A stretch of 64,000 nt of DNA, taken from the NCBI GenBank assembly GCA_031177685.1, contig JAPSGI010000001.1:186001-250000 (forward strand), in the 5' to 3' direction. Positions 31,343 to 49,290 of this stretch are shown piece by piece. The DNA is from Solirubrobacteraceae bacterium. GTDB lineage: Bacteria; Actinomycetota; Thermoleophilia; Solirubrobacterales; Solirubrobacteraceae. The notes under the pieces are model-generated. The model was not told the origin of the DNA, ran no database searches, and worked only from the letters and a program-made list of their open reading frames with translations. Every line of letters begins with the position of its first letter. Position 1 is the first letter of the stretch. The translations under genes and the position numbers were made by a program.

Positions 31343-31418
<76 letters not shown>

Positions 31419-31446
31419 CGAAAGCCCCGCTCCGGCGTGGCTTTCG
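31419..31446 (+). terminator. Terminator after tRNA-fMet
   Basis: CGAAAGCC (31419-31426) pairs with GGCTTTCG (31439-31446) around a 12-base GC-rich loop. Similar but diverged hairpins follow the other two repeat copies. Confidence 0.7.
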
Positions 31447-31514
31447 TCGTTTCCGGGGATGAGGCGGCGGGCGCGGCCGCACGGGTTTGCACGGCGGCGC
31501 CCGCTCGGATTTAG

Positions 31515-32247: not shown

Positions 32248-33399
32248 CTAGGCGACCGACCCGACCAGCTCCCCAACAACGTCGAGGATCGCCTCGGCAC
32301 ACGTGTCAGGGTTGTGCCACTGGACGAAGTGAAACGCGTCGGGAAGCACGTGGAGGTTTTCCTCAATCTGGGGCACCTCGTCGCGCCATTGGGCGACGAC
32401 GCTCGGCTTGCCGAGCGGGTCCTGGGACCCGAACACGCCTCCGACGGGAATCGCCTGTCCCCGCGGGCCCCAGACGGCGCCGATCTTCTCCTGGATGTTG
32501 CGATAGAAGGCGACGTTGTTCTGTGGGCCGAGCGTCGGCTCCTCGAACGAGTATCCGTTGCACATGGTCGGGCTTTCGAGGCATGCTCGCTTCGAGCTGC
32601 GAGCGTTGGCCTTCGTGGAGAGGGCGTCTCGCCACACGGCGAACTCCGGGCCGCAACCCTTTGGTATCCGGCCCGTGGCGCCAGCTGCCAGGAGCCGCAT
32701 CCACTTGAGGTTGTCCTTGACGTCGCCCGAGAGCGTCTCGAACTCCATGACGGCGGCGGCATGAACTCCCCATAGGCGATCGGGCACCACGAACGGAGTC
32801 TGAGACCACGAGATCGGTCTCGTCAGGTTCGCGTACGTGGGCCTGTCCCCGGGCTGGGGAAACACCGAGGTCGCGTTGACGACGAGTCCGCGGACCCGCT
32901 CGGGGCTGTCGATCGTGGCCCCGATGCCGATCGGCCCACCCCAGTCGTGGACGATCAACGTCATGTCCCGCAGGTCGAGCGCCTCGATCAGCTGCCGCAG
33001 ATTGTCAGCGTGGCGCATCTGGAGCATCTCGTAGGTGGCTTGATCGGACCTGCCGAAGCCGATGTTGTCGGCCGCCACGATGCGGGTGCCCTCGGGGAGC
33101 CCCTGACGCTTCAGCTCGTCGATCGTGGTCCGCCAGGCGTAGGAGCACTCGGGGTTGCCGTGGACGAAGAGCAGGAGGGGGCCATCCCCTTCGCCAAAGC
33201 GCCGGTCGAAGAAGAACATCCTCTTGCCCGCATCGGGACCCTCGGGAATTACGAACCACTGCGCATCGGCGCCGTGGCTGTAGTCGGCCGGGACGTCGGT
33301 CAGGGGCGAGTTGCCTGGGCTCGATGCGAGGATGCTCGCGATCCTAGCCGCGCCCAGGGCTGCGGGGTATCGTCGGTCCGTGAAGGCGACGCTTTTCAC
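32248..33399 (-). CDS. Alpha/beta-hydrolase, haloalkane-dehalogenase-like
   Basis: 383 residues if GTG 33399 is used; the conserved part begins only around residue 40 (SHGADAQWFVIPEG) and no better start is seen, so the N-terminus is uncertain and overlaps the divergent GST gene. Core motifs: oxyanion HGNPECSYAWR, nucleophile Asp152 in VHDWGGPIG with the halide-binding-type Trp next to it, acid in FGSQDPLG and His in DAFHFVQW. An Asp nucleophile with adjacent Trp is the haloalkane dehalogenase pattern, although epoxide-hydrolase-like relatives share it. Several HLD relatives have other roles. Confidence 0.72.
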   Translation of the reverse strand: MKSVAFTDRRYPAALGAARIASILASSPGNSPLTDVPADYSHGADAQWFVIPEGPDAGKRMFFFDRRFGEGDGPLLLFVHGNPECSYAWRTTIDELKRQGLPEGTRIVAADNIGFGRSDQATYEMLQMRHADNLRQLIEALDLRDMTLIVHDWGGPIGIGATIDSPERVRGLVVNATSVFPQPGDRPTYANLTRPISWSQTPFVVPDRLWGVHAAAVMEFETLSGDVKDNLKWMRLLAAGATGRIPKGCGPEFAVWRDALSTKANARSSKRACLESPTMCNGYSFEEPTLGPQNNVAFYRNIQEKIGAVWGPRGQAIPVGGVFGSQDPLGKPSVVAQWRDEVPQIEENLHVLPDAFHFVQWHNPDTCAEAILDVVGELVGSVA

Positions 33400-34117
33400 G
33401 ATCGCCGGTACCCCGAACGGCGCGATCGCCGAGCGGATGCTCGAGCACAAGCGCGTCGAGTACCGCCGGGTCGAGCTTCTGCAGACTCTCCACAAGCCGA
33501 TCGTCCGTCTGTTGGGATTCGGCGGCAACACGGTCCCGGCGCTGACACTCGACCGTCGCAAGGTTCTCGGCACACGCGCGATCGCGCGAGCGCTCGAGGA
33601 AGCGCGCCCCGACCCGCCGTTGTTCCCGCGCGACGAAGCGCGGCGCGCCGAGGTCGAGGATGTGGAGCGGTGGGGTGAGGAGGTGCTGCAGACGTTCCCG
33701 CGCCGCATCGTCCTGTGGGCGGCGCTGCGCGACCTGCGGGCGGCGGCGTCATTCGTCGAGCGCGGGCCGTTCGCGAGGCTTCCGGATTGGCTCGTGTCGG
33801 CGCTCGCACGCCCGCTGGTATCGGCCGGCGTGCGCGTGAACAGGACAGGCGATGGTCCCGCGCGCGCCGCCCTCGCCGAGCTTCCCGAAGCACTCGATCA
33901 CGTCGAGGAGCTGATCCGGCGCGGCGTCCTCGGTGGTGACCAGCTGACCGCGGCCGACTACCAGGTCGGTTGCCAGCTGCGGGTCCTCATGTGTCTCGAC
34001 GACCTTCGGCCCCTGATCGAAGCGCGCCCCGCCGGCCGCCTCGCCGTGCGCGCCTGTCCGCACCACCCAGGGCACGTCGGCCACGTGCTCCGGCCGGACG
34101 AGCTCCCGTCTGGCTAG
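33380..34117 (+). CDS. Glutathione-S-transferase-like protein
   Basis: 245 residues from GTG 33380, six bases after TATCGT (33368-33373). N-terminal thioredoxin-like domain (VKATLFTIAGTPNGAIAERMLEHKRVEYRRVEL) with NTVPALTLDRRKVLGTRAI as the cis-Pro/GSH-site strand, then an all-helical C-terminal domain. No active-site Cys or Tyr is obvious. Actinobacteria usually lack glutathione, so another thiol or a non-catalytic role is possible. Its 3' end overlaps the convergent cupin gene by four bases. Confidence 0.65.
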   Translation: MKATLFTIAGTPNGAIAERMLEHKRVEYRRVELLQTLHKPIVRLLGFGGNTVPALTLDRRKVLGTRAIARALEEARPDPPLFPRDEARRAEVEDVERWGEEVLQTFPRRIVLWAALRDLRAAASFVERGPFARLPDWLVSALARPLVSAGVRVNRTGDGPARAALAELPEALDHVEELIRRGVLGGDQLTAADYQVGCQLRVLMCLDDLRPLIEARPAGRLAVRACPHHPGHVGHVLRPDELPSG

Positions 34118-34635
34118 GTGCGGTAGCCGAGCACCCTGCCGACGCGAGCCAGGCCGCGCATCAGCGAACGCAGGACGCGGCTGCTGGGCACCAGCAGGTC
34201 GGCATGCTCTCGCCAGACCATCGACATGAAGATCGCGGTCGACGGTCGCTTCAGACCCTTGAACCGGTCCGAGACGGCGAACCGATACTGCTTCTCGACG
34301 AACTCGTCGAAGTGGCTCCCGGGCCGGTGGAAGTTGCGCACGCGCACCGGCTGCCCGGACGGGACGCGAAACGTGTGGCTGCTGTTGACCGGGACGGACG
34401 CCGAGTCGCCGGCGGCCAGCGAGCGCCAATGGCCGTCGACCATGACGTCGAGGCGCCCCTCGAGGACCTCGTACTCCTCCACCTGAGTCGGATGGCGGTG
34501 CGGGGGCGGCGCGAAGGCGCCGGGAGGGAGCGTCCACTCCATCTCCACGTACTGCCCGCCGGCGTCCTCGTGCGAGGTGACGATTGCGTATTCGCCCACG
34601 TCCGGGATCACGTAGCGATCGCCCGAGCGTGGCAT
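34114..34635 (-). CDS. Cupin-domain protein
   Basis: 173 residues from ATG 34635; a GTG at 34644 is in frame but lies in the TAGGGT -10 (34648-34643) that sits seven bases before the ATG. A single cupin barrel (about 20-105): PPPHRHPTQVEEYEVLEGRLDVMVDG supplies metal-binding His and Glu, and VPVNSSHTFRV the second motif. The C-terminal 70 residues are helical and basic. Divergent from the TetR operon and likely sharing its control region. Substrate unknown. Confidence 0.72.
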   Translation of the reverse strand: MPRSGDRYVIPDVGEYAIVTSHEDAGGQYVEMEWTLPPGAFAPPPHRHPTQVEEYEVLEGRLDVMVDGHWRSLAAGDSASVPVNSSHTFRVPSGQPVRVRNFHRPGSHFDEFVEKQYRFAVSDRFKGLKRPSTAIFMSMVWREHADLLVPSSRVLRSLMRGLARVGRVLGYRT

Positions 34636-34649
34636 GCGCCGCACCCTAC

Positions 34650-34698
34650 TTGACGCACCGCCACGATCTTTGTACGGTCGCCTTAGTCACTCGACTAA
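34650..34698 (+). promoter_or_regulatory. TetR promoter and palindromic operator
   Basis: TTGACG (34650-34655), 17 bases, TACGGT (34673-34678), then the perfect inverted repeat TTAGTC-ACTC-GACTAA (34683-34698) right over the expected transcription start. A palindrome at this place just ahead of a tetR gene is the usual autoregulatory operator; repression of the downstream hydrolase-glycosyltransferase gene would follow. Confidence 0.65.
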
Positions 34699-34707
34699 AC
34701 ACCCGCG

Positions 34708-35337
34708 ATGGAACGGAACGCTCAACTGCAGACAGCCCCCGCACGGACCCGGCAGGAGACGATCGACGTCTTCCTCGACGCGGCGGAGCGGCTGCTCATC
34801 GGCTCGGGCGCCGCGACCGTCACGACGCGCCGGCTGGCCGCGGAGGCGGGTCTGAACCACGGCCTGGTCCACTACTACTTCGGCTCGATCGACGAGGTCG
34901 AGCTGCAGGTCCTCGAGCGCTTCACCGCGCGGCTCGTCGAGCGCCAGCGCGCCATGTACGCGGCCGACGTCCCGTTCCTGGAGAAGTGGCGCACGGCCAT
35001 GCGCTACCTCGAAGAGGACCTCGAGGCGGGCTATCCCAAGGTTCTGGCCGAGTTGTGGTCGCTGGCCTGGAACCGCCCCGAGATGCGCGCGCGGATCGCG
35101 GTGACGTGGGAGGCGTGGCGCGCCGTGCTGACCGACGCGTTCGACGCTGCGATCGAGGAGTACGGCCTGGACCGCGAGCGCTATCCCGTGAAGGCGCTCG
35201 TGACGCTCGTGCTGACGTTCAACAACGGGCTGCTGATCGAGCGCCTCGGGGGGATCGACGAGGGTCACCGCGAGCTGCTGGATTGGATCGACGACTGGCT
35301 CCAGGAGCTGGAGCGCGCGAAGGGGGACTCGAGATGA
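34708..35337 (+). CDS. TetR-family transcriptional regulator
   Basis: 209 residues from ATG 34708. Helix-turn-helix at about 33-60 (TVTTRRLAAEAGLNHGLVHYYFGS), followed by an all-helical ligand domain. The gene overlaps the following enzyme by ATGA, so both are co-expressed. A perfect 16-base palindrome lies ten bases upstream. The ligand is unknown; the fused hydrolase/glycosyltransferase is the probable target. Confidence 0.85.
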   Translation: MERNAQLQTAPARTRQETIDVFLDAAERLLIGSGAATVTTRRLAAEAGLNHGLVHYYFGSIDEVELQVLERFTARLVERQRAMYAADVPFLEKWRTAMRYLEEDLEAGYPKVLAELWSLAWNRPEMRARIAVTWEAWRAVLTDAFDAAIEEYGLDRERYPVKALVTLVLTFNNGLLIERLGGIDEGHRELLDWIDDWLQELERAKGDSR

Positions 35338-37529
35338 GCACGACCGTCACGCCGCAGACGCGAACCGCGCAGCCGGCCGCCACGCCGGGCCGCGTAACCG
35401 AGCAGACCCGCGCGCGCTATCCCGACGCCGAGGGCTACGCCGAGCGCGACGGCCAGCGCCTGTTCTACGAGGTCTACGGCGAGGGCGAGGAGACCGTCTT
35501 CTTCCTGCCCACCTGGTCGCTCGTGCACTCGCGCGTCTGGAAGATGCAGGTCCCCTACTTCGCCCGCCACTTCCGGGTGCTCACGATGGACGGGCTGGGC
35601 AACGGCCTGTCCGACCGCTGCGGCGACCCGGAGCGCTACGCCGCCGCAGAGTTCGCCGAGGACTGCCTGGCCGTGATGGACGCGACCGAGACCCGTCGCG
35701 CCGTGCTCGTGGGCGTCTCCCGCGGCGCCCAGTGGCTGCTGGAGATGGCCCGGCGCCACCCCGACCGGGTGGCAGGCGCCGCCTTCCTGGGGCCGATGTT
35801 TCCCTACACGCCCTCGCAGTGGTCGCTGCTGCTGCACCCGGCGACGCAGCGCGGCTTCTTCGCGCGCATGCCCGCCTACCGCGGATGGGGCCGCATTAAC
35901 GCGAACCACTGGCGACAGGACTTCCCGCAGTTCGTGGAGTGGTTCCAGCGCCGCTGCCTGCCCGAGCCCCACTCGACCAAGGCCATCGAGGACGCCGTCG
36001 GCTGGGGCCTGGAGACCGACCCCGAGACGCTGATCGCCACGGCGCAGGGAGCTATGCACCGCGACCGCGCCACGCTGCGCGAGCTCGCGCAGGGCCTGTC
36101 CTGCCCGAGCCTCGTGATCCACGGCGACCGGGACAGGATCACCCCCCTGCGCGACGGTCGGGCCCTGGCGCGGCTGGCCGGCGCCGGCCTGGAGGTGGTG
36201 GAGGGCGGCGGGCACGTCATCGGCGCCCGCAAGCCCGTGGCGGTCAACCTGGCGCTGCGCGACCTGGCCGAGGAGGTCTTCGAGCGCCCGCGCACGCCCC
36301 GCGACCCCACCGTCCACCGCGGCGACGGCCGGCCGCGCGCGCTGTTCGTCTCCTCCCCGATCGGGCTCGGCCACGCCCAGCGCGACGTCGCCATCGCGCG
36401 CGAGCTGCGCCGGCGCGTGCCCGGCCTGGAGGTCGACTGGCTCGCCCAGAACCCCGTCACCCGCGTGCTCGAGCAGGAGGGCGAGCGCATCCACCCCGCC
36501 AGCGCGCACCTGGCCAATGAGTCCAAGCACATCGAGTCCGAGTCGGCCGAGCACGATCTGCACTGCTTCCACGCCTTCCGGCGCATGGACGAGATCCTTG
36601 CCGCCAACTTCATGGTCTTCCACGACCTCGTGCGCGACGAGCGCTACGACCTGTGGGTCGGCGACGAGGCGTGGGAGCTGGACTACTACCTGCACGAGAA
36701 CCCGCGCGAGAAGCGCGTCCCGTTCGCCTGGCTGACCGACTTCGTGGGCTGGCTGCCGATGTCCGACGGGGGAGAGCACGAGCACTACCTGACCGCCGAC
36801 TACAACGCGGACATGATCGATCACATCGATCATCACCCGGAGGTGCGCGACCTCGCGCTGTTCGTCGGCAACCCCGAGGACATCGTCCCGCACCGGCTCG
36901 GCCCGGACCTGCCGCTCGTGCGCGACTGGACCGAGCGCCACTTCGACTTCACGGGCTACGTCACCGGCTTCGACCCCGAGGCGCTCGGGGACCGTTCGCG
37001 GCTGCGCGCCGAGCTGGGCTACGGGGACGACGAGCGCGTGTGCATCGTCACGGTGGGCGGCTCGGGCGTCGGCGCGCACCTGCTGCGGCGGGTGATCGAC
37101 GCCTTCCCGGCGGCCAGGGAGCGGGTCCCCGACCTGCGGATGATCGTCGTGGCGGGCCCGCGCATCGACCCCGCCGGGCTACCCGACCACGACGGGCTGG
37201 AGGTCGTGGCCTACGTCCACAACCTCTACCGCCACCTGGCGGCCTGCGACCTCGCCGTCGTGCAGGGCGGCTTGACGACGTCGATGGAGCTGACCGCGAA
37301 CAAGCGGCCGTTCCTGTACTTCCCGCTGCGCCACCACTTCGAGCAGAACCTCCACGTCCGCCACCGCCTCGAGCGCTACGGCGCGGGCCGGCACATGGAC
37401 TTCGACCACTCGACCCCGGAGGACGTCGCCGACGCGATCGCCGCTGAGGTAGGACGCGAGGTGAGCTACCGCGACGTCGAGACCGACGGGGCCGAACGCG
37501 CCGCGGACCGGCTGGCGCAGCTGCTCTGA
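35334..37529 (+). CDS. Fusion of alpha/beta-hydrolase and GT28/MurG-like glycosyltransferase
   Basis: 731 residues from ATG 35334. Residues about 40-310 are an alpha/beta-hydrolase: LPTWSLVHSRVW, nucleophile Ser129 in VGVSRGAQW, acid in IHGDRDRITP and His in EGGGHVIG. A short linker leads at about 335 to a glycosyltransferase of the GT-B type: LFVSSPIGLGHAQRDVAIARELRRR at the start and VVQGGLTTSMELTANKRPFLYFPLRHHFEQ near the end, the nucleotide-sugar binding region of MurG/UGT-like enzymes. The order suggests hydrolysis or transacylation and glycosylation of one small molecule. Co-transcribed with TetR. Substrate unknown. Confidence 0.8.
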   Translation: MSTTVTPQTRTAQPAATPGRVTEQTRARYPDAEGYAERDGQRLFYEVYGEGEETVFFLPTWSLVHSRVWKMQVPYFARHFRVLTMDGLGNGLSDRCGDPERYAAAEFAEDCLAVMDATETRRAVLVGVSRGAQWLLEMARRHPDRVAGAAFLGPMFPYTPSQWSLLLHPATQRGFFARMPAYRGWGRINANHWRQDFPQFVEWFQRRCLPEPHSTKAIEDAVGWGLETDPETLIATAQGAMHRDRATLRELAQGLSCPSLVIHGDRDRITPLRDGRALARLAGAGLEVVEGGGHVIGARKPVAVNLALRDLAEEVFERPRTPRDPTVHRGDGRPRALFVSSPIGLGHAQRDVAIARELRRRVPGLEVDWLAQNPVTRVLEQEGERIHPASAHLANESKHIESESAEHDLHCFHAFRRMDEILAANFMVFHDLVRDERYDLWVGDEAWELDYYLHENPREKRVPFAWLTDFVGWLPMSDGGEHEHYLTADYNADMIDHIDHHPEVRDLALFVGNPEDIVPHRLGPDLPLVRDWTERHFDFTGYVTGFDPEALGDRSRLRAELGYGDDERVCIVTVGGSGVGAHLLRRVIDAFPAARERVPDLRMIVVAGPRIDPAGLPDHDGLEVVAYVHNLYRHLAACDLAVVQGGLTTSMELTANKRPFLYFPLRHHFEQNLHVRHRLERYGAGRHMDFDHSTPEDVADAIAAEVGREVSYRDVETDGAERAADRLAQLL

Positions 37530-37730
37530 CGGCGAAGATCACGAGCGGCGGTCGAGGACTACGCCCTCGCGACCGTCCCGGGAACCCTCCGGACATGACC
37601 CGGCAACGGCCCGTGCATGCGGGAGCGGGTACCAATCGGGGTACCAATCTGAGCGCGAGCGAAGCCAACTGAGATCGCCGAATCCCGCGGACACTGGTCA
37701 CGTGACACGAAGCCCTATGCCAAGGCCAGC
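37530..37730 (+). other. Right end of island A; integrase 3'-end relic
   Basis: No intact gene. Bases 37627-37654 match 48493-48520 at about 25 of 28 positions and both stop exactly 77 bases before their att repeat. In the frame shared by both copies they read GTNRGTNLS and GTDPGTNLS, like the tail of a protein. Many tRNA-targeting integrases end close to the att site, so these may be the last traces of integrase genes; that is inference. Confidence 0.45.
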
Positions 37731-37773
37731 CTCATAACCCGAAGGTCGCGGGTTCGAATCTCGCCCCCGCTAT
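37731..37773 (+). repeat. att-like direct repeat, copy 2
   Basis: 43 bases matching the 3' half of tRNA-fMet with one change (C to T at 37761). It is not a full tRNA: the 5' half is missing. It ends island A and begins island B. Confidence 0.85.
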
Positions 37774-37777
37774 AGGC

Positions 37778-37803
37778 GAAGCCCCGGCTCCGGCTGGGGT
37801 TTC
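37778..37803 (+). terminator. Hairpin after att copy 2
   Basis: GAAGCCCC (37778-37785) pairs with GGGGTTTC (37796-37803), one G-T pair, loop of ten. It resembles the tRNA terminator at 31419 in place and shape. Confidence 0.55.
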
Positions 37804-38362: not shown

Positions 38363-41300
38363 GTGCGGGACGGGCAAGACGATGGGCGCTGCACGCATAG
38401 GCAGCACATGGTGGGCCGGGATCGGCACGCCGGCTTGTCGCGCTCGGGTGCGGGCGCGGCCCTGATCGCGGTCCTGGCCGTCCTGGTGAGCGCGGCCCTA
38501 TTTGGCGTGGTGGCCGATTTGGGTGCCGCCGCTGGCTCTGCCGGGTCCGCTGCGTCCGATCCGGCGGCCGCCGACTCGCCTCCGCCGCCGGAGCCGGTTC
38601 CGGTGAGCGCGGCTACCGACCGGAGCGATGCTGGCATCCGCGCGCGGTCGCGCAGCGAGTACTCCAACCAGACCGCGGAGCGGGCGTTGCAGACGCTTCG
38701 TCAGAAGCATCCGGGTCTGCTCCCGCCGCCGTGGCGCTCCCTGGCGGATAGCCCTCATCCGGTCAAGGCGTACATCGGCGACCACGCAGCCCAACTGGAT
38801 CTGGGCAATGGGAGGCACGGGCTGGTCGAGTCGGTGCTGCCACTGCGAGCGCGAGATGCCTCGGGGACGAAGGTGCCGTTGGACTTCGGGCTAGACGAGC
38901 GGGGCGCGTTCTTCGCGCCGCACGTGCCGCTGGTCGCGGTGCGCTTGCCCAAGCGCCTGTCGGACGGCATAGAGCTGCCGGACATCGGCGTGGCCGTCAC
39001 CCCGATGAACGCGGGCGCGGGCGCCCCGGCACAGCGCGCCGAGGGATCGGTGTTCTGGGCGAATGCCGGGGGTCGTGACACCGACGTGATCGCGATGCCG
39101 GTTCCCTCGGGCTTTCAGGTTCTGGGCTACCTGCGCTCGGCGGAAAGCCCGGAGGGAGTCTCGCTGCACCTGACGCTGCCCGCCGGCGCGCACGCCAAGC
39201 GCAGCGGATCGGAAGGGGGCATCGTGATCGAACGCGGCGACGACGTGCTGGCGCGGATCTCACCGCCGGTCGCCTATGACGCCGATGGGACGCGCTTCGA
39301 GTCTTCCTACACGCTGGAGGGCGACACATTGACGGCGCGGGTTGCTCATCGCGACGCGCATCCCCACTATCCGATCGTCTTGGACCCTGTGGTGGCCGAA
39401 GACCAGCGTCACTGGCACACGAATGGGGGCATCGACTTCAACGGCTGGGCGTCAGGAAGTGTCGGGGGCTCGCCGTTTGTCTTCTGGCCGGGCGATTGGT
39501 GGCTGGGCCGGGGCCTGTACATCTACGACGCCGATGCCTTCTACACCAATGGCCACTATGGGTATTGGAGCTTCAACGCGCCGGGCTCGGAGTCATTCGT
39601 GTACGCAGCGGAGTTCCACTACGTCCGCACCGTCGATCAAGACACCTGTCTCAGGGAGGGCATCACGAACAGCGCGGGCGGGTGGCTGACCAACACGCTG
39701 TGGTGCAACGCGAATCTGAACTACGAGGGCCACGGCCACTGCGCGGCGCCCGGGTGTCCGTCGACCGCCGGCGCGGCAAACAACAGCGCCCGCTTCCACT
39801 TCCTCGCGGCCTACTACAACAAGTACCGCGACTGGTTTTGGGGCTACTTCGGCGGCGCGCTCGTCTGGCTGAATGACCTCACGCCACCGACGCTCAGCTG
39901 GTACGGGCCCAACTCCAGCTCATGGGTGCACAGCACGCCTCGCAGCCTGGCGCCGCTGGGCCGCGACAACGGCTTGGGGATCAAGCAGTGGAAGCTCAGC
40001 CTACCCGGCCAGCCGGATCGCTACCGCACGCACGATTGCGCCGGGCATCGCAACGACCGCTGCCCGTACGCCAGCGGCGTCACCGGTGTCTCGCCCAATG
40101 CCCCGCGGACATCCGGAGATGACTTCACGTACAGCACCGGCATCCTTCCCGATGGCATCAACGAGGTGCGCGGCTACGCGGCCGACTTCGCGGGCAACTG
40201 GTCGCCTCCACTCATCGACTACGTAAAGGTCGACCACTCGCCGCCCCAGATCGCGCTGTCGGGCACCCTCGCGGCTGCCGACGGACGAACGCTTGACCAC
40301 TCATCGATCTATCGCTTGCAGGTCGATGCCACCGACGGCACCGCCAGCGACCCTCGCGTCGGTGTCAAGAGCATCGAGATCCTGGTTGACGACGCGCGCC
40401 AGGACTACGCCGAGCAGGCGTGCACGCCCGATAGCTGCGCGATGAAGCACGAATGGAACCTTGTTCCGGCCGCGTTCGCGCCTGGACGACATACGATCGA
40501 GGTCACGGCAACCGATCAGCTCGGCCACTCCTCGACGCGCGAGCTAACGGTTGACGTGCCGGAGAGCACGGGGTGTGGCGGGGGCAGCGTCGATCTGCGC
40601 TCGCCCGTCTTCGCTGTCTCGACTCTGCGGCTCGTGGGCTGCCCGGGCGCCAGAGACAAGGAGGTGGCGGTCGACACTCGTGTGCGCGCTGATGGCGTGG
40701 CGGCCAACAACTACGCGGGCAGCGAGATCGCCAATGTCGGCGACGTCAACGGCGACGGCCGACCCGACCTCGCGGTCGTGGCGCCCTACGCCTCGACGAA
40801 CGGAAAGACACAGAACGGCGCCGTCTACATCGTGTACGGACGCTCAACGGCACCCGACCTCAGCTCCACCGGACCCAATGCGACGACCGTCCCGCTCGGG
40901 AGTCTTGGGACCGGTGGCTTTCGCATCGATGGCAACTGGCCGGGCGAGAAACTCGCGAACGTCGTCGGACTGGGAGACATCAACGGCGATGGACGCGACG
41001 ACCTTGCGGTCAGCAACTCCAATGCAGCCCACCTGGGCCGGGTCGGAGGCGGCTGGGTGTTCGTCGTCTTCGGCAAGTCGGGCAGTACAAACGTCGACCT
41101 GGCAGCTCTGGGCTCAGGCGGGTATCGCATCTTTGGCGCGGCTGCCGGCGATAGTACGGGTGCATCGCTCGCTCGCCTAGACGATCTGAACGGTGATGGA
41201 CGCGCCGAGCTGGCCATCGGAGCGCCCAACGCCGACAACAACTCACGCGCCGAGTCGGGGTCGGTCTACGTCGTCTACAGCAAGGCGACCACTAGCGACA

Positions 41301-42079
41301 TCGACCTCGCGGCCCTAGGTACCGACGGGTTCCGCGTCGACGGCCCGCCCGCGTCGAGCCCGTCGTTCGGCATCAACCTCCTCGCGGCGGGCGCCGACTT
41401 CAACGGCGACGCAAAGCCCGACATCGTCGTAGGCAACTCCTGGGCCTCCCCGAACGGACGGACCCGGGCTGGCTCGGCGTGGGTGGTCTTCGGACAAGCC
41501 GGGTCGGGCAACATCGACTTGAATTCGCCCGGGACGTCGTCCTACCGCGTCGACGGCGCGGTGGGCGGAGACCAGCTCGGCTCGGCTGCGGCCGGCGTCG
41601 GCGACTTGGACAGCGACGGCATCAGCGAGGTCGCGATCGGGGCGCCGCGCGCCTCGAACAACCATGGCGGAGGATCGGTGTACGTCATCACCGGCAAGCC
41701 GCGTGTGGGAACTCTCGACGCGCGGGAGCCGCTCGGCACCGAGGGCTATCGAATCGACGGTGACAACACGTCTCGCGGCGTCGGCAGTCGTTTGGCCAGG
41801 ATGAGTGATGTCAATGGCGACAATATCCCCGACCTGGGGATCGGCGCCGACAGCGGAGGGGTGTACGTCGTCTATGGCCAGGCCACGCACGGGTCGGTTG
41901 ACCTCAGCCTGCGTACGTTTAACGGGTATCGAATTGACGGCGCTGGCTCGTGGCCCAGCCTGGCTGACGCTGGCGACTTCCTCGCGACCGGCACGCCAAC
42001 CATCGCCATCGGAGACGACAACCTGCGGATGTCCGCCGGTTCGGTGTACCTCCTCGACGCCAAGCCTCGCCTGCAATGA
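38363..42079 (+). CDS. Large exported protein with C-terminal seven-bladed FG-GAP (integrin-like) propeller
   Basis: 1238 residues from GTG 38363 with GGGAG ahead. A signal anchor (about 33-55: ALIAVLAVLVSAALFGVVADL) precedes a Pro/Ala linker, a beta-rich N-terminal domain of the kind found ahead of RHS/YD-repeat proteins (HGLVESVLPLRARDASGTKVPLD), a middle region with four paired cysteines and an Ig-like segment. From about 785 seven repeats with Ca-binding DxNxDGxxD loops begin near residues 793, 872, 940, 1012, 1081, 1149 and 1209 (the last degenerate), i.e. one complete integrin-type propeller. Acts outside the cell, probably in adhesion or carbohydrate binding. First of four coupled genes. 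Confidence 0.82.
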   Translation: MRDGQDDGRCTHRQHMVGRDRHAGLSRSGAGAALIAVLAVLVSAALFGVVADLGAAAGSAGSAASDPAAADSPPPPEPVPVSAATDRSDAGIRARSRSEYSNQTAERALQTLRQKHPGLLPPPWRSLADSPHPVKAYIGDHAAQLDLGNGRHGLVESVLPLRARDASGTKVPLDFGLDERGAFFAPHVPLVAVRLPKRLSDGIELPDIGVAVTPMNAGAGAPAQRAEGSVFWANAGGRDTDVIAMPVPSGFQVLGYLRSAESPEGVSLHLTLPAGAHAKRSGSEGGIVIERGDDVLARISPPVAYDADGTRFESSYTLEGDTLTARVAHRDAHPHYPIVLDPVVAEDQRHWHTNGGIDFNGWASGSVGGSPFVFWPGDWWLGRGLYIYDADAFYTNGHYGYWSFNAPGSESFVYAAEFHYVRTVDQDTCLREGITNSAGGWLTNTLWCNANLNYEGHGHCAAPGCPSTAGAANNSARFHFLAAYYNKYRDWFWGYFGGALVWLNDLTPPTLSWYGPNSSSWVHSTPRSLAPLGRDNGLGIKQWKLSLPGQPDRYRTHDCAGHRNDRCPYASGVTGVSPNAPRTSGDDFTYSTGILPDGINEVRGYAADFAGNWSPPLIDYVKVDHSPPQIALSGTLAAADGRTLDHSSIYRLQVDATDGTASDPRVGVKSIEILVDDARQDYAEQACTPDSCAMKHEWNLVPAAFAPGRHTIEVTATDQLGHSSTRELTVDVPESTGCGGGSVDLRSPVFAVSTLRLVGCPGARDKEVAVDTRVRADGVAANNYAGSEIANVGDVNGDGRPDLAVVAPYASTNGKTQNGAVYIVYGRSTAPDLSSTGPNATTVPLGSLGTGGFRIDGNWPGEKLANVVGLGDINGDGRDDLAVSNSNAAHLGRVGGGWVFVVFGKSGSTNVDLAALGSGGYRIFGAAAGDSTGASLARLDDLNGDGRAELAIGAPNADNNSRAESGSVYVVYSKATTSDIDLAALGTDGFRVDGPPASSPSFGINLLAAGADFNGDAKPDIVVGNSWASPNGRTRAGSAWVVFGQAGSGNIDLNSPGTSSYRVDGAVGGDQLGSAAAGVGDLDSDGISEVAIGAPRASNNHGGGSVYVITGKPRVGTLDAREPLGTEGYRIDGDNTSRGVGSRLARMSDVNGDNIPDLGIGADSGGVYVVYGQATHGSVDLSLRTFNGYRIDGAGSWPSLADAGDFLATGTPTIAIGDDNLRMSAGSVYLLDAKPRLQ

Positions 42080-45000
42080 ACTCCGATCCCGCAATGTCAC
42101 ATTTTCACAGCACGGGGCGTTCGTCGGACATGGGCGGGGAAACGATCGGAAGTCGGCGATGCGGGCTGGCGGCCTGGTCCCTCGTCGCCATCGCGATGCT
42201 CGGCGCGATGGTGCTGTCGCCGACTACTGCGCCCAGCGCTGGCGCCGCCACGGGACCCCGCGTGGCGGCGCTCGACACGTGGCCTGGCGCGTTCAGCGCT
42301 CGGACGGCCACGAAGTCGCGCCAGTCCGCCCGCCGAGCTAGCCGGATACGCAGGCGAACTGCCCGAGCATCGCGCCGCCCAAGGTCGGCACCGGCGGCCG
42401 TCCCGCCTTCGGCCGCGACACTCTCTCCGCGGTCAGGCGGTGACTCTGGCGCCGGTTACCAAGTCGCCGACGAACTGAACAGAGTCGTTTCGTCCGCTTC
42501 GCAGCAGGAGTCCTCGGCGCCGATCGAGGATCCCGGGCCGATTGCGCTTCCCGTCGGAGGAGTGATCGTCGATCCGCTGGCCGCGGGGGTGGAGGAGAAC
42601 CCGCCCAGCGTCGAGCAGCCGAACGTCTCCGTGGACCCGTACTTCCCGACCAACAACCTCGCGCTGGGACTTTTCGGTTCGGGATTCGGACGAGGCGACA
42701 ATTTTAGCCAGCGGGTGGCCGTGGCGGTTGGCGGCGGGCAGGTGTGGGTGATGGCCGGCGGCAGCTCCAGCAAGCTCGTCTACAACTTCGACACCGTCGA
42801 GCTCACGCCCGGACACGATGAGGACGGGACCGCCAACGACATACCCGCATCGTGGCCCACCGGGCTTTCGAGCCTGCGAGATCTCGCCTACTACGGGGGC
42901 GAGATCTATGTCCTGGGTACCGAGGGCAGCGCCACCACGGTCAAGGTGTTCACCCCCCAGGGCGCGGTCGTTCGCACGCTGCGCCCCAACGTGCCGACGA
43001 GCGACAGCGCCTTCACCGGCCTCGACGTCGCATGGAACGAGCTGTGGCTCTCGCGGCCCGCCAACACGACGTTGAACGCCGAGGACATCCTCGGCCAGGA
43101 GATCGCCATCTTCGACGCTCACAGCGGCGGGCTGAAGGGCATCTCGCGCAACCCGCTCAGCGAGCGTCGCGACATCTCGCCGCGCGGCTGGTGGGACCTT
43201 GCCATCGTCCCCGAGTTCGGCGGCGCCATCGTGGACCGGCGCATGTTCGCGCGCGGCACGATCCTCCCCGGTCTCGCCACCAACGACTCCGAAGGGTGCA
43301 CGGCCGTGCTGGTGTACGCGTGTGCGTCCGCAGACCAACGCGGAGTCGACGCGCCCTGGGGAATGCGCTGGTTCCTGGAGATCGTCTCGAGCGCCGCCAA
43401 CGGCACCTACCGACCCGTCAAGGAATTCGCCGTCGTCAAGCGCTCCCTGGCCCCTCAAACGGCCGCGCTGGATCCGCTCACCGACTTCCTCGGCCCGCTC
43501 GGGACCTCCGGCTACTACCTCACCCAAAAGCGCGAGTGGGAGCCCTACATGGCGCAGAACCTCGGCGACCCCTTCACACTTTCCGACATCGCCTACAACA
43601 ACCGCGAAGTGCGCATCGACTGGTTCGGCCCGCTGTCCAAGCGCGACTGGCAGCGCGGCGACAACCAATGCGTCAGTTACATCGTCTCCGACGCCGACGT
43701 CTTCATCGTCGGCGCCAAGGGCGAGCGCCGCTACGAACTCGCCCGCGGTTTCGAGCAGATCGGCTACCGCATCGACGGCGGACCGCTTCAGCAGATCCGA
43801 ACCGGCATCACCAACGCCGTCGGCGACTACTGCATCGACACGACGACGTATAGCAACGGTGTTCACAAGATCCAGCTCGAAGCCAGGGTCGGCGGCCGGA
43901 CGATCACCGTCGAGAACACCCAGCTGCACATCGACAACGAGAAGCCGACGGGTGCGTTGGACCCGCTCCCCACCTGGGCGCGCGAGCAGATCACAGTCAC
44001 CGGCACTCTGACCGACGAATGGTCAAAGCCCCGCGACTGGACGCTGCGCGTGAAGAGGCTGTCGGACGAGAACGACAACTCGATTGCCGGCGCTTCGTGG
44101 CAGACCGTGTGCCCTAACGTGACGACTCCCGATCCCATCGGCAAGTACAGCTGCGCGTGGGACACGAGGCAGTACGGGGACGGCGATTACGAGGTACAGG
44201 CGGCGCTCCGCGACAACTCCTTGGGAATCCTGCACCGGGAGGCCGAGACGACGCCTCGCAACAACGAGCAGACGGTCACGGGTTACACGAGCGTGGACAA
44301 CCACGGGCCGGTGCTCGGCAACTTCGCGCCGGCTCTCGGCGAATACGGGAACGAGACGGTCGAGGAGGTTGACTCGGCCGTCGAGTGGACGCAGACCGAC
44401 GCACTCTCCGGCATGGACTCCGGACTGATCCAGCACAACACGGCCGCGGGCAGGTGCGATGGCGACTGGCGTGACATCGGTACCTCTCAGGCGTCTGGCG
44501 AGGCGGAAGTGCCGTGGAACACGGCGGCCCTGCCAAACGGCCTGCTCTGCCTTCGCGCGCTTGCCCGCGATCGCGCCGGTAACGCGACGGAGGTCCGTTG
44601 GCAGGCCATCGTCAGCGCCAAGCGCTTCTACGCCCCTCCGGTGCCTGGGTCGTCGGGTACCGTCGAGACGGAGGACCCCCAGCGCAACTACGCCGGGCAG
44701 GACGTCGGTGCTCGGCCCCCCGCGCGCCGCGGCGCCGGGTTTCGCTTCAACTGGGGGACCAGCGTCGCGATCAAGACGCCGACGGCTCCACAGCCCTTTC
44801 AGCTTTCGCAGACGTCGAATCCGCGACCGGACCCGCCCTTCCGCTGCTGCGCTGAGGCCGCCTTCACCGCCCATCGGGTGGGGAACGGCAACAGCGACAA
44901 CAGCCTCGGCTTCATAGAGGTCGGGCTCATAACCGAGGGCTGGTGCAACTCGCGCCGTTTCGATCCGGCGACCGATGCGGAGCACTACGGCTGGAACGAG

Positions 45001-45528
45001 GGCTGGCGCATCTACGGCGCGCACACGAACCCCGGCGGCGTGGACGGGAAATCGTGTCCGACCGGGAACCTGCCCGCGGGCCGTCAGTGGAGGGCGACGA
45101 CGTACGTCAATGGCTACCTGAGCGCGGGCAAGCCCCGGATCTTCGGAGCCATGTTCTGGCGCGACGCCGCAGTGGGGAGCAACCAGCTGATCTACGCGGA
45201 CGATGGAACGGCGCGCAGCCGCTACCGGCTGGCCTACCGCGCCGGCCTCCAGGGGCAGGCGAAGAGCGAGGCGTACACTTTCAACGCCAAGGATCGTAAT
45301 CATCACCGGCCGATGGACGGCGCCTATCTCGGTCTGCGCCTGCGCAAGTTCCCGCAGGGCGGCTATGGGTCCCCGACTTCGTCGGAGGTGACCCAGAGCA
45401 ACGATCTGCACGGCTTTTACTTCATGGACAGGCGCGACTTCGGCGTCTCGCCCTGGCTGGACTTCTGCACCGCCGGGCCCTTCTACAGGGTCCCGGACGA
45501 CCCTCCTGACAATCCATGCGACCCGTAG
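42076..45528 (+). CDS. Large exported protein of unknown function
   Basis: 1150 residues from ATG 42076 (ATGA overlap). Signal peptide at about 30-55 (GLAAWSLVAIAMLGAMVLS), a basic Arg/Ser/Ala linker, then a beta-propeller-like part (about 190-330: VAVAVGGGQVWVMAGG, LAYYGGEIYVLGTEG), two Ig-like/Bacterial-Ig segments (about 600-850 with HIDNEKPTGALDPL and NHGPVLGNF) and a C-terminal domain rich in Trp, Tyr and Cys (EGWCNSRRF..., WNEGWRIYG). No catalytic signature is visible. It presumably works with the two propeller proteins encoded on either side. Confidence 0.72.
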   Translation: MNSDPAMSHFHSTGRSSDMGGETIGSRRCGLAAWSLVAIAMLGAMVLSPTTAPSAGAATGPRVAALDTWPGAFSARTATKSRQSARRASRIRRRTARASRRPRSAPAAVPPSAATLSPRSGGDSGAGYQVADELNRVVSSASQQESSAPIEDPGPIALPVGGVIVDPLAAGVEENPPSVEQPNVSVDPYFPTNNLALGLFGSGFGRGDNFSQRVAVAVGGGQVWVMAGGSSSKLVYNFDTVELTPGHDEDGTANDIPASWPTGLSSLRDLAYYGGEIYVLGTEGSATTVKVFTPQGAVVRTLRPNVPTSDSAFTGLDVAWNELWLSRPANTTLNAEDILGQEIAIFDAHSGGLKGISRNPLSERRDISPRGWWDLAIVPEFGGAIVDRRMFARGTILPGLATNDSEGCTAVLVYACASADQRGVDAPWGMRWFLEIVSSAANGTYRPVKEFAVVKRSLAPQTAALDPLTDFLGPLGTSGYYLTQKREWEPYMAQNLGDPFTLSDIAYNNREVRIDWFGPLSKRDWQRGDNQCVSYIVSDADVFIVGAKGERRYELARGFEQIGYRIDGGPLQQIRTGITNAVGDYCIDTTTYSNGVHKIQLEARVGGRTITVENTQLHIDNEKPTGALDPLPTWAREQITVTGTLTDEWSKPRDWTLRVKRLSDENDNSIAGASWQTVCPNVTTPDPIGKYSCAWDTRQYGDGDYEVQAALRDNSLGILHREAETTPRNNEQTVTGYTSVDNHGPVLGNFAPALGEYGNETVEEVDSAVEWTQTDALSGMDSGLIQHNTAAGRCDGDWRDIGTSQASGEAEVPWNTAALPNGLLCLRALARDRAGNATEVRWQAIVSAKRFYAPPVPGSSGTVETEDPQRNYAGQDVGARPPARRGAGFRFNWGTSVAIKTPTAPQPFQLSQTSNPRPDPPFRCCAEAAFTAHRVGNGNSDNSLGFIEVGLITEGWCNSRRFDPATDAEHYGWNEGWRIYGAHTNPGGVDGKSCPTGNLPAGRQWRATTYVNGYLSAGKPRIFGAMFWRDAAVGSNQLIYADDGTARSRYRLAYRAGLQGQAKSEAYTFNAKDRNHHRPMDGAYLGLRLRKFPQGGYGSPTSSEVTQSNDLHGFYFMDRRDFGVSPWLDFCTAGPFYRVPDDPPDNPCDP

Positions 45529-47417
45529 CTGGCACGCATACGTTGTTTCCAGCCATCGGCGTCGGCGGAGTGTTGGGGCTGGTCGCCCTCTGCCAGGCGG
45601 TGGCCTGGGCGGAGCCCGGCGTGATCCGGTTTCCTGCAGGCACGCACATGCAGGTGGTCGGAGTGCATCCCGGTGACCGGGCGGGTGCGGCGGTGGCCGG
45701 AATCGGGGACTTCAACGGCGATCGCATACCGGATGTCGCGGTTGGCGCCCCGGGCACGAGGGCGAAGGGCCGCGGCGCGCCCGGTGCCGCCTACGTGGTG
45801 TTCGGCCGGCGCCGGGGGCCATCGACTGTGCGCCTTGCCGCGCTCGGTCATGCCGGTATGCGCATCGCCGGCGCGCGGTCTGGAGACCGTCTCGGAACGT
45901 CGGTGGCCGCGATCGGGGATGTAAACCGCGATGGTCTGTCGGACGTGGCGCTCGGGGCACCTGGCGTCGACCGCGGAACGCATCGCGACGCCGGCGCAGT
46001 CTACGTGCTGTTCGGGTCTCGGCGCGCCGGGGGCGTTCGCATCGATCGGCTGGGCGCCGGCGGCCTGGAGATCTTCGGCACGCAGACCTATGCGGGAGTA
46101 GGGGATTCGATCTCAGGCTCCGGCGACGTCAACGGGGACGGGATTCCGGACATGGCTCTGGGGTTGTTGGAGCAGCGCGCGAGCAGGACGCCTACCGCGC
46201 GCGTCGTCCTCGGCCCCTTGGCGGCGGGGACCGCACCGGTGGACTCCGCTCGCCTGCGGGGCTTTCAGGCCAGCGCCCCGGGTCCTCGCCCGCCGAGCGG
46301 GCGGCGTTTGCGACCACCATCACGCGTTCCGGTCGCCGGGGTGGGTGACGTGAACGGCGATCGCCTGGACGACGTGGCATTCGGCGACCCGGGAGGCGGA
46401 CCGTTCCAGCCCAGTTCGCTGTCGGCGTATGTTGCGTTCGGCCGCCGGAAGGAGGGCTCGGTCACGACGAGCGGCGGCAACGGGTTTGTCGTGTTCTCCC
46501 CCTCGGCCGGTTTCGGGCCGCTCGGCTTCGGGTTCGCCGTCACCGGCCGGGTAGACGCGACCGGGGACTCCGTTTCCGACATTTGGACGTCTGACGTGCG
46601 CTCAGGCGGCCCAGGCGGGGGGGAGACCGGGTCGGTGTACGCCTTCTCGGGCCGCGGCCGGGCCGAGGGCACCAATGTGACCGCGATCGACGGCTTGCTC
46701 CGGCTGCGCGAGGCGGAGCCGGGCGACGCGCTCGGCTGGTCGCTGACGGTCGCCCCCGATACCGCGGGAAGGCCGGGCTGGCTGGTCGCAGGGGCCCCGG
46801 GCCGCCGCGCCAAGAGCTGCCGGCGCACCGGCGCTCTGTACATGGTCCCGCTGCCGCTGCGGCGGGCCACCACCGAGCTCGCGGACTCGCGCGAGGTCCA
46901 CGAGGTGGTCGGCCGCCGCCCCGAGGGTGCGCTCGGCCAGGCAGTGGCCGACGCGGGGGACATGACCGGTGACCGGGTGCGGGAGGTGGTAGTCGGCGCC
47001 CCGGGCTGGGAAAGCGAGCGGGGACGCGCGCTTGCGGGGTCCGCCTATGTCCTGACGTTGCCGCGCACGAGAGCGCGCCTCGCGGACACGGTCGGGCCAC
47101 GCCTGTGCGTCCGCCGTCCGGCGCTGAGCGCGACGCGGCTCGCCCGCCGCTCGCGCCTGGCGGTTTCGGCAAGCGTCGACGAGGCGGCCACGGTCGACGC
47201 CAGGGCAACGCTGCGCACTCCGGACTCAAGGCTGATCGTCATGGACGGTCGCGCAGTCTCGCTCGCGGGCTCCGGCCGCGCCCTGGTCGAGTTGCGCGTC
47301 CCCTCCGAGGCCACGCGCGCAGCGCGACCCGGCGCGCGCCTCAAGCTGGAGGTCTGGGCGCGAGACCGCAGCGGCAACGTCTCGCGCCGCGAGTGGAAGG
47401 AGCGACTGGAGAGATGA
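45516..47417 (+). CDS. Exported seven-bladed FG-GAP (integrin-like) propeller protein
   Basis: 633 residues from ATG 45516, inside the last 13 bases of the preceding gene. Signal peptide (about 10-32: LFPAIGVGGVLGLVALCQAVAWA). FG-GAP repeats start near residues 64, 134, 204, 277, 346, 412 and 481, the first four with good DxNxDxxxD Ca loops (GDFNGDRIPD, GDVNRDGLSD, GDVNGDGIPD, GDVNGDRLDD). A C-terminal beta-sandwich (about 530-630) ends in GNVSRREWKERLER. It is essentially a free propeller plus an Ig-like domain. Confidence 0.82.
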   Translation: MRPVAGTHTLFPAIGVGGVLGLVALCQAVAWAEPGVIRFPAGTHMQVVGVHPGDRAGAAVAGIGDFNGDRIPDVAVGAPGTRAKGRGAPGAAYVVFGRRRGPSTVRLAALGHAGMRIAGARSGDRLGTSVAAIGDVNRDGLSDVALGAPGVDRGTHRDAGAVYVLFGSRRAGGVRIDRLGAGGLEIFGTQTYAGVGDSISGSGDVNGDGIPDMALGLLEQRASRTPTARVVLGPLAAGTAPVDSARLRGFQASAPGPRPPSGRRLRPPSRVPVAGVGDVNGDRLDDVAFGDPGGGPFQPSSLSAYVAFGRRKEGSVTTSGGNGFVVFSPSAGFGPLGFGFAVTGRVDATGDSVSDIWTSDVRSGGPGGGETGSVYAFSGRGRAEGTNVTAIDGLLRLREAEPGDALGWSLTVAPDTAGRPGWLVAGAPGRRAKSCRRTGALYMVPLPLRRATTELADSREVHEVVGRRPEGALGQAVADAGDMTGDRVREVVVGAPGWESERGRALAGSAYVLTLPRTRARLADTVGPRLCVRRPALSATRLARRSRLAVSASVDEAATVDARATLRTPDSRLIVMDGRAVSLAGSGRALVELRVPSEATRAARPGARLKLEVWARDRSGNVSRREWKERLER

Positions 47418-48349
47418 GAATCAGACACGTAATGATCGCGTCGCTGACCGTTGCCCTGTGGGCCTGTCCCGGACAGCCGGCGCTCGCGACGGTGGCGTCG
47501 GACATGGAGGCCGACCTGCGTGCCTCCGGGATATCGGACGTCACGGTCCAGGTACAGACGCCACCCGCCGCGCCCTCTGCCCTCAACGAGGACGCGGACT
47601 GGTCGGGCGTGACCCTAGACAGCCTCACCCCCTTCATGTCATCCGATCCGTTCCAGCCGTCGCCCGTAGCCCGGATCACCGTGGACCGAGACCCCGGCTC
47701 CCCACTGAAGGGAATCGTCGAGCCGCCTGGTGAGGCCACCTACACGATGGCGGTCGCCGAGCTTCCCAAGCTGAAGCTAGCGGTATGGGAGGCCCTGAAG
47801 CACGCCCTCGCTCAGGGCGCGAACCTCGCTGGTACCAGGCTCGACTTGCGCGAGGACGGTGCCGTCGTCTCCAGCGAGCTGACCAGCGCGCCGCAGCCCG
47901 GTGCCTACTCGCCGACACAGGACTCGCCCTCGGTGATGTCCAAGGATGCGGTTCGCCAACAGGTGGAGGGAGACTTTCCCGCCTGGGCGAAGGCGGCGCA
48001 GGTAACCGTCAGCGACGACTACGTCGGCGAGCGGATCGTGATGGCCCAGCTCGACTTGCCGCACGCTAGCTTCGCCTCGATCGACGTCGGCGAGCTGCTC
48101 CGCACCCTCATCAGCATGCAGATTCGCCTCCAGGACCAGGGAGCTCGTATCGGTCGGGTTCTGGCCCGGGTGGACGATCCCATCACCGGCGACCCCCTCT
48201 ACACCGCAGCAGCGGATGCCCTGTTCGGGTCGATGGAGCTGACGTGGTACTCCCCTCACGTTCGCGGTATCGCTCGCGGGCTCGTCGGGCCGGATGTCCG
48301 AAGCCTCGTGCCGCCAGTGAATTCCGGTCAGCTTCCTGCGGCGCCGTGA
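47414..48349 (+). CDS. Exported protein of unknown function, last gene of the propeller operon
   Basis: 311 residues from ATG 47414 (ATGA overlap). Signal peptide RHVMIASLTVALWACPGQPALA with a possible lipobox-like LWAC. The body is alpha/beta with repeated VEGDFPAWAKAAQVTVSDDYVG-type strands; no family recognised. Tight coupling and export signals on all four genes imply one surface assembly. Confidence 0.7.
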   Translation: MRIRHVMIASLTVALWACPGQPALATVASDMEADLRASGISDVTVQVQTPPAAPSALNEDADWSGVTLDSLTPFMSSDPFQPSPVARITVDRDPGSPLKGIVEPPGEATYTMAVAELPKLKLAVWEALKHALAQGANLAGTRLDLREDGAVVSSELTSAPQPGAYSPTQDSPSVMSKDAVRQQVEGDFPAWAKAAQVTVSDDYVGERIVMAQLDLPHASFASIDVGELLRTLISMQIRLQDQGARIGRVLARVDDPITGDPLYTAAADALFGSMELTWYSPHVRGIARGLVGPDVRSLVPPVNSGQLPAAP

Positions 48350-48596
48350 CTCAGCGGATCATCCCGAGAAGCACCACGGTGTAGTCGTCCCAGTCCATAG
48401 CCGCGGTCTGCGCCCGGTCACCTTGCGCAACATCCTCGACGTCGCTGGCGTCAGCCGAACGACCTGCGCCGCCTCCTCTAGACGCCCCCCGCGGGTACCG
48501 ATCCGGGTACCAATTTGAGCCCAACCGACCCCAGCTCAGCCCCCCGAAACCCCGCAAATACCGGCCAAATCGGTCCACCCGCACGCCTACGGCAGC
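48350..48596. other. Right end of island B
   Basis: No intact gene. A minus-strand frame (48351-48584) ending DWDDYTVVLLGMIR is open but unconvincing. Bases 48493-48520 are the second copy of the island-end sequence described at 37627, again 77 bases before the att repeat. Confidence 0.45.
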
Positions 48597-48640
<44 letters not shown>

Positions 48641-48647
48641 GATGATT

Positions 48648-48678
48648 CCCCGACCGGCCCTATGGCCGTTGGGGTTTT
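48648..48678 (+). terminator. Hairpin after att copy 3
   Basis: CCCC (48648) pairs with GGGG (48671) and GGCC (48656) with GGCC (48664), loop CTAT, one bulge, followed by TTTT. Likely the ancestral terminator of the tRNA, displaced by the insertions. Confidence 0.6.
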
Positions 48679-49290
48679 CTCGTTTTCGGATACCAGCTCG
48701 CTGGTGAGCGTCGCGGCGAGCGTGAGCTTCCGGAGGGCCTTGTCGGAAGACCACCTTGACGTTGAACGCGGCAAAGATGTCGGCCAGCGCTCCCGGTGTG
48801 GCCGTGCGCAGCGCTGGGCTCAGGTCCGGCAGTACGGCGAGCATTGCCTCGAATCTCGTCAGGGCGCGTGCTGTCGGGGCGGCTGGATTCGAGCGACCGT
48901 AGCGCCTCCTCAAGCGCGGCTCGCCGGGCGCCCAGCTCCTCGATACGGTCCTTCCCGGCGGCGACGACGGGATGATCGGAATCAGCTCGCCCTTGAGAAG
49001 GACGACCTCGCCGTCGTGGTCTCGCCACTCGGTTGTTGCTGAGCGGGCGAGATCGTGACGCAGCAGCCGGAGGCGATCGGAGCCGGGAAGGCGCCGCTCC
49101 ATGAAGTCAAGCAGCTCATCGAGGATGACCCCTTCCTTGCTGCCAAGGGTCCGTGGGTGCCCGGGTTCATCGGCGGCGACTGCGCCCCGGTTCCACATGA
49201 TCGGCAGCGGAACCAGTTCTTGCCTTCTGGTGGGTGCCCTCCATGCGCCGCTCGCACAGGCGGCTATGCACGCGGCTCGGAGCGATTAGG
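48660..49290 (-). pseudogene. Frameshifted remnant of a large serine recombinase
   Basis: Pieces of one protein occur in order on the minus strand but in changing frames: CERRMEGTHQKARTG (about 49259-49215) and WFRCRSC (zinc-ribbon), HPRTLGSKEGVILDELLDFM (about 49165-49100) with RLRLLRHDLA, a coiled coil KDRIEELGARRAALEEALRS (about 48950-48885), then LTRFEAMLAVLPDLSPALRT and ALADIFAAFNVKVVF (about 48880-48745). This order (zinc ribbon, recombinase linker, coiled coil, C-terminal motif) is that of large serine recombinases. At least three frameshifts and no resolvase domain: inactive. Confidence 0.65.

What the first reader, a model, noticed from the sequence alone, without database searches (positions are those of the whole stretch)
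38363..48349. Four-gene surface operon built around two seven-bladed integrin-like propellers
Seen: four genes coupled by ATGA or short overlaps, all with N-terminal export signals; genes 1 and 3 each have seven FG-GAP repeats with DxNxDGxxD Ca loops at about 70-residue spacing, genes 2 and 4 have no recognised domain, and gene 2 ends in a Cys/Trp-rich domain. The operon fills island B almost alone. Known: FG-GAP propellers mediate adhesion, including in bacterial surface proteins. Inference: a mobile, self-contained adhesion or recognition apparatus. I know of no described system with this composition.
Basis: partly seen in the sequence, partly recalled or inferred. Interest (0 to 1): 0.75.

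Follow-up and report, generated by a model that had tools for sequence, protein, structure and literature searches.

The report
Mobile propeller cassette from toxin-family parts
An integrated block of four exported-protein genes carries two integrin-type propellers, and its first two genes turn out to be the two halves of a larger secreted protein whose front end is shared with a big family of bacterial RHS toxin proteins, so it looks like a re-purposed, toxin-derived surface recognition device rather than a wholly new machine.

Summary
Four intact, overlapping ORFs (38363-48349) each start with a hydrophobic export-type segment. Genes 1 and 3 each carry seven FG-GAP repeats; six per protein keep a relaxed calcium loop, but only two match DxNxDGxxD strictly.

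The interpretation needs revising. Gene 1 (residues 42-728) and gene 2 (147-868) align end to end with one continuous ~1,550-residue protein encoded at two other loci of the same genome. In the window the FG-GAP propeller, a stop and a new signal peptide lie at the junction. Gene 1's ~210-residue N-terminal 'header' has no Pfam/NCBIfam model and folds confidently (pLDDT 94.5). It recurs in large exported proteins of related genomes, mostly carrying RHS repeats, DUF6531, PT-HINT or an AHH nuclease. Genes 1-2 are therefore a split, RHS-less branch of that polymorphic-toxin-type family. Gene 4 and gene 2's C-terminal tail are orphans.

'Mobile' is supported: the operon nearly fills a 10.9-kb segment between tRNA-Met 3'-end repeats, next to a sister island with matching ends. 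No integrase was found.

Best reading: a surface recognition/adhesion cassette built on an RHS-toxin scaffold. An envelope-acting polymorphic toxin remains possible. Function is inferred; the gene 2 structure prediction failed.

The parts
31343..31416 (+). intact tRNA-Met (CAT), left boundary of two tandem islands
   Evidence: ARAGORN
37719..37786 (+). tRNA-Met 3'-end repeat (att-like), boundary between island A and island B
   Evidence: 68-nt direct repeat, 87% identical to 48585-48652; core found exactly at 31377, 37733 and 48599, none in 100 shuffles
37624..37686 (.). element right-end sequence of island A (GGTACC-rich, 62 bp)
   Evidence: aligns with 48491-48552 with score 54 versus shuffle maximum 28; the GGTACCNATCNGGGTACC motif occurs only at these two places in the genome
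48491..48552 (.). element right-end sequence of island B
48585..48652 (+). tRNA-Met 3'-end repeat (att-like), right boundary of island B
38363..42079 (+). gene 1 (P0001): export segment, header domain (residues ~137-344), Trp/Tyr-rich region, Ig-like domains, then FG-GAP seven-bladed propeller (residues ~785-1238)
38771..39394 (+). header domain shared with RHS/polymorphic-toxin-type proteins
   Evidence: alignment A4, 23 members; AF2 mean pLDDT 94.5
42076..45528 (+). gene 2 (P0002): own export segment; residues ~185-868 homologous to the second half of paralogues P0005/P0006; residues ~870-1150 Cys/Trp-rich orphan tail
45516..47417 (+). gene 3 (P0003): export segment plus FG-GAP seven-bladed propeller plus ~118-residue C-terminal domain
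47414..48349 (+). gene 4 (P0004): exported 311-aa orphan

Best explanation
A horizontally acquired, non-autonomous island at tRNA-Met carries a four-gene exported assembly derived from the RHS polymorphic-toxin-type secreted proteins of this lineage. The ancestral body (header + Ig-like domains + second half) has been split into two polypeptides. An integrin-type FG-GAP propeller sits where relatives carry RHS/toxin modules, a second propeller protein (gene 3) and a small exported partner (gene 4) follow, and no RHS cage or recognised toxin is present. Shown: gene structure, homology, colinearity with the fused paralogues, header family, island boundaries. Inferred: Sec export, retention at the cell surface by gene 1's very hydrophobic N-terminus, pairing of genes 1 and 2 as subunits of one assembly, and use of the calcium-stabilised propellers to bind a ligand on other cells or on extracellular polymer, i.e. 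recognition/adhesion rather than killing.
For: Gene 1 42-728 and gene 2 147-868 match P0006 (E 4e-68, 2e-38) and P0005 (E 2e-67, 2e-33) in order, in continuous ORFs of 1537 and 1593 aa. Profile A2 of gene 1's N-terminal half hits 33 of 61 related genomes. Of the 20 header proteins in A4 from other genomes, 12 carry RHS repeats (one across a stop codon) and 3 more carry AHH, DUF6531 or DUF6973. A secreted seven-blade FG-GAP gene stands directly upstream of a header+RHS+YD-shell gene in another genus (L096). A third genome has a header followed, across an in-frame TGA, by Ig-like + FG-GAP + cellulase (L083). One relative has header + NHL propellers + RHS in one protein (L090). No RHS or toxin domain was recognised in genes 1-4. 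Islands.
Against: No functional data. The FG-GAP/header pairing in other genomes rests on two loci, close to what chance could give because FG-GAP genes are common (40 of 61 genomes). The gene 2 fold could not be modelled (pLDDT 33). The header has no significant structural match (best Foldseek E 2e-3, TM 0.33). Gene 2's orphan tail could be a toxin. No integrase was found in either island.
Confidence: 0.5

Rival explanations
1. It is a working polymorphic toxin system without an RHS cage: gene 2's Cys/Trp-rich tail is an envelope-acting effector displayed on the header/propeller body, and gene 4 is its exported partner or immunity protein.
For: All three paralogous loci share a conserved body but have non-homologous C-terminal tails and a different small exported gene downstream: P0004 (with the propeller gene P0003), P0007, and the metzincin-like P0010 with HExxHxxGW. 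This is the constant-body/variable-tail pattern of polymorphic toxins (PMC3482391).
Against: No toxin domain recognised in gene 2. The downstream proteins are exported, and one looks like a protease rather than an immunity protein. Most described toxins of this class are nucleases acting in the cytosol.
Confidence: 0.22
2. A secreted polymer-binding or degrading apparatus (exopolysaccharide or plant/fungal polymer), not cell recognition.
For: A header relative carries a GH5 cellulase domain (L083). The weak header fold matches are beta-sandwich domains of GH92/GH63/GH121 glycosidases. Gene 1 has an aromatic-rich region after the header.
Against: No carbohydrate-active domain in genes 1-4. Fold matches are below significance.
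Confidence: 0.15
3. Ordinary collection of unrelated secreted repeat proteins, or a decaying island cargo, with no shared function.
For: FG-GAP proteins are common in relatives. Gene 4 and gene 2's tail are unknown elsewhere. No integrase remains.
Against: Four intact ORFs with translational coupling and coding-type GC3. Genes 1 and 2 are colinear with a fused protein.
Confidence: 0.1

Closest known systems
Sec-exported RHS polymorphic toxins (RHS_repeat PF05593 / Rhs_assc_core TIGR03696 proteins, WapA-like)
   Same: same exported N-terminal header followed by Ig-like domains, as in L076, L082, L084, L086 (header alone in L096); constant body with variable tail and variable downstream gene
   Different: no RHS repeats, DUF6531, HINT or known toxin domain in genes 1-4; body split over two genes; propeller at the position of the cage
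TcdB/TcaC-type proteins (SpvB + integrin-like beta-propeller + RHS; PMC3482391, PMC6425310)
   Same: integrin-like propeller as part of an RHS-family secreted protein, with functional units divided over two polypeptides (TcB/TcC)
   Different: no SpvB domain and no RHS shell found; the header is unrelated by any profile used here
Bacterial seven-bladed integrin-type FG-GAP proteins (PMC3192720)
   Same: seven FG-GAP repeats with one calcium-loop motif per repeat
   Different: one or two loops degenerate; propeller fused to a toxin-family header in gene 1
Bacterial teneurin-like proteins (Ig-like + NHL propeller + YD shell; PMC6425310)
   Same: Ig-like domains and a propeller preceding an effector region; relative L090 has header + NHL + RHS
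   Different: no NHL or YD match in genes 1-4

Membership tests
RHS polymorphic toxin | N-terminal exported header shared with RHS proteins | tested here: met
RHS polymorphic toxin | RHS/YD repeats and Rhs-associated core | tested here: not met
   no PF05593, TIGR01643 or TIGR03696 hit in genes 1-4 up to E=1
RHS polymorphic toxin | C-terminal toxin domain with adjacent immunity gene | tested here: inconclusive
   gene 2 tail and gene 4 are orphans with no family
TcdB/TcaC-type | SpvB domain | tested here: not met
   no SpvB hit in Pfam scan up to E=1
TcdB/TcaC-type | integrin-like beta-propeller | tested here: met
   FG-GAP in genes 1 and 3; integrin alpha-V is the best PDB sequence match for gene 1, E 2.6e-6
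Integrin-type seven-bladed FG-GAP propeller | seven repeats at ~60-75 residue spacing with DxDxDG-type calcium loops | tested here: met
   six loops plus one degenerate blade each, spacing 68-78 in gene 1 and 69-74 in gene 3 (the loopless blade leaves a double step of 135); strict motif only twice per protein
Teneurin-like | NHL propeller plus YD shell | tested here: not met
   no NHL or TEN models hit genes 1-4; gene 2 model failed
tRNA-integrated genomic island | direct repeat of tRNA 3' end at both boundaries | tested here: met
tRNA-integrated genomic island | integrase gene | tested here: not met
   no integrase among ORFs of islands A and B or at their ends by Pfam/PHROGs

The most novel reading that the evidence does not exclude
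A new class of cage-less polymorphic system in which integrin-type propellers replace the RHS shell: the split header/second-half assembly presents gene 2's orphan tail as an envelope-acting effector, with the exported gene 4 as its cognate partner, spread as a tRNA island cassette.
Probability: 0.15. Interest if true: 0.7.

Novelty: new variant of a known kind. Interest (0 to 1): 0.45.

Why it matters
It ties an apparently unknown surface operon to a large family of exported RHS proteins through a header domain (~210 residues) for which none of the libraries used holds a model. It also shows that the RHS part of such proteins can be absent with a propeller in its place, and that one polypeptide can become two. 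If true, part of what is filed as polymorphic toxins may serve recognition or adhesion, and the header becomes a handle for finding such proteins.

Tried and rejected
P0002 tblastn in phages and plasmids and the gene 1 N-terminal half in plasmids found nothing. Viral contigs with P0004 and P0002 found nothing. Two whole-order searches with full P0002 failed on the machine side. Structure prediction of gene 2 with three sequences was unusable, so a propeller in gene 2 remains a guess from its sequence. An empty site in relatives could not be tested: the flanking M24 peptidase has no ortholog there (25-38% identity only). The reverse-strand ORF at 48587-49198 looked like a recombinase C-terminus by eye but had no profile hit, so it is not claimed. 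Simple anchoring by a sortase motif was not tested.

Full report
Observation. The four ORFs are real, intact and overlapping: 38363-42079, 42076-45528, 45516-47417 and 47414-48349, with third-position GC of 0.81-0.85 and a hydrophobic N-terminal segment in each, weakest in gene 4. Pfam FG-GAP scores 1.9e-42 in gene 1 and 2.4e-20 in gene 3. Each has six relaxed calcium-loop motifs: spacing is 78, 69, 71, 69, 68 in gene 1 and 70, 69, 74, 69, 135 in gene 3, where the double step holds a loopless blade. Composition shuffles never exceeded 2 and 1 motifs. With the degenerate blade this makes seven per protein, but only two loops in each meet the strict DxNxDGxxD. Gene 1's propeller finds integrin alpha-V as its best solved sequence match (E 2.6e-6). 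Genes 2 and 4 match no family above cut-off in Pfam, NCBIfam, PHROGs or PADLOC.

Island. An intact tRNA-Met lies at 31343-31416. Its 3' end is repeated at 37733 and 48599 with an exact 28-nt core; shuffles give none, and the longer repeat is 68 nt, 87% identical. About 62 bp just before the second and third copies are homologous (score 54 versus shuffle maximum 28), and their GGTACCNATCNGGGTACC signature occurs nowhere else in the genome. This is the picture of two sister elements inserted in tandem. Island A (31417-37732) carries hydrolases, a TetR-like regulator and a hydrolase-glycosyltransferase. Island B carries the operon. No integrase was found in either, so both are non-autonomous or worn.

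What genes 1 and 2 are. Searching gene 2 (residues 193-1150) in the genome gave two further loci. There, single ORFs of 1593 aa (P0005) and 1537 aa (P0006) align first with gene 1 residues 42-728 (31-32% identity, E 2e-67 and 4e-68) and then, directly downstream, with gene 2 residues 147-868 (26%, E 2e-33 and 2e-38). In island B the propeller of gene 1, its stop codon and the signal peptide of gene 2 lie at the junction. The window genes are thus a split form of a protein that is one chain elsewhere. That fusion is the ancestral state is inference by parsimony. The three paralogues have unrelated tails, and each is followed by a different exported gene: P0003/P0004 here, the 224-aa P0007, and P0010 with a HEFGHATGW metzincin-type motif and a sub-threshold matrixin match.

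The header. A profile of gene 1's N-terminal half hits 33 of 61 related genomes. Iterated on the fetched loci, residues ~137-344 define a header present in 23 aligned proteins. Of the 20 from other genomes, 12 carry RHS repeats (L076, L079, L082, L084, L086, L088, L089, L090, L091 across a stop codon, L092, L093, L096), three of these with PT-HINT. L085 carries an AHH nuclease, L087 DUF6531 and L075 DUF6973. L096 also matches Rhs_assc_core and DNRLRE. No Pfam or NCBIfam model covered the header in these scans. AlphaFold2 gives an all-beta fold at pLDDT 94.5; the best PDB fold match is non-significant (GH92, E 2e-3, TM 0.33). From memory, WapA-type Gram-positive RHS proteins have a similar N-terminal region; this was not tested.

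Propellers and RHS proteins. In a second genus (G005, L096) a secreted seven-blade FG-GAP gene stands immediately upstream of a header+RHS+YD-shell gene. In G036 (L083) a header ORF continues, after an in-frame TGA, into Ig-like, FG-GAP and cellulase domains. In G078 (L090) one 3646-aa ORF has header, Ig-like, DUF6531, NHL propellers and RHS repeats. These show that propellers and RHS parts mix behind this header. FG-GAP genes are common (40 of 61 genomes), so two neighbourhood cases are suggestive, not proof. Integrin-like propellers with RHS are known from the TcdB/TcaC pathway, and NHL propellers from teneurin-like proteins (PMC3482391, PMC6425310). Genes 1-4 lack SpvB, RHS and NHL matches and are not members of those families.

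Function. The most likely reading is an exported recognition/adhesion assembly made from an RHS-toxin-type body with the RHS part absent and integrin-type propellers present (0.5). A cage-less polymorphic toxin, with gene 2's tail as effector and gene 4 as partner, is the main rival (0.22): constant body, variable tail and variable downstream gene at all three loci fit it, but no toxin domain is recognisable. A polymer-binding role (0.15) and an ordinary or decaying cargo (0.1) follow. Gene 4 and gene 2's tail had no homologue in 150 genomes of the order, so the four-gene set as such is known only here. The gene 2 fold prediction failed.

Noticed in passing
31417-37732: Sister island A in the same tRNA-Met site carries two alpha/beta hydrolases, a TetR-like regulator and a fused hydrolase-glycosyltransferase 28-type protein; no integrase.
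   Followed up: partly
L090:1890-12827 (-): 3646-aa ORF combining the header, DUF6531, several NHL/Vgb-type propellers and RHS repeats.
   Followed up: partly
L083:4257-9146: Header ORF followed, after an in-frame TGA, by Ig-like + FG-GAP + GH5 cellulase domains; may be an interrupted gene or a sequence error.
   Followed up: no
L014:10877-11751: Exported metzincin-type protease (HEFGHATGW) directly downstream of the paralogue P0006.
   Followed up: no
L085:7214-8431: 405-aa ORF with no NCBIfam hit directly after a header-AHH nuclease gene; a candidate immunity protein.
   Followed up: no
48587-49198 (-): Reverse-strand ORF resembling a recombinase C-terminus by eye, just beyond the last tRNA repeat; no profile support.
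   Followed up: partly
17001-18000: Isolated strong AT skew (0.435) in an otherwise balanced GC-rich region.
   Followed up: no
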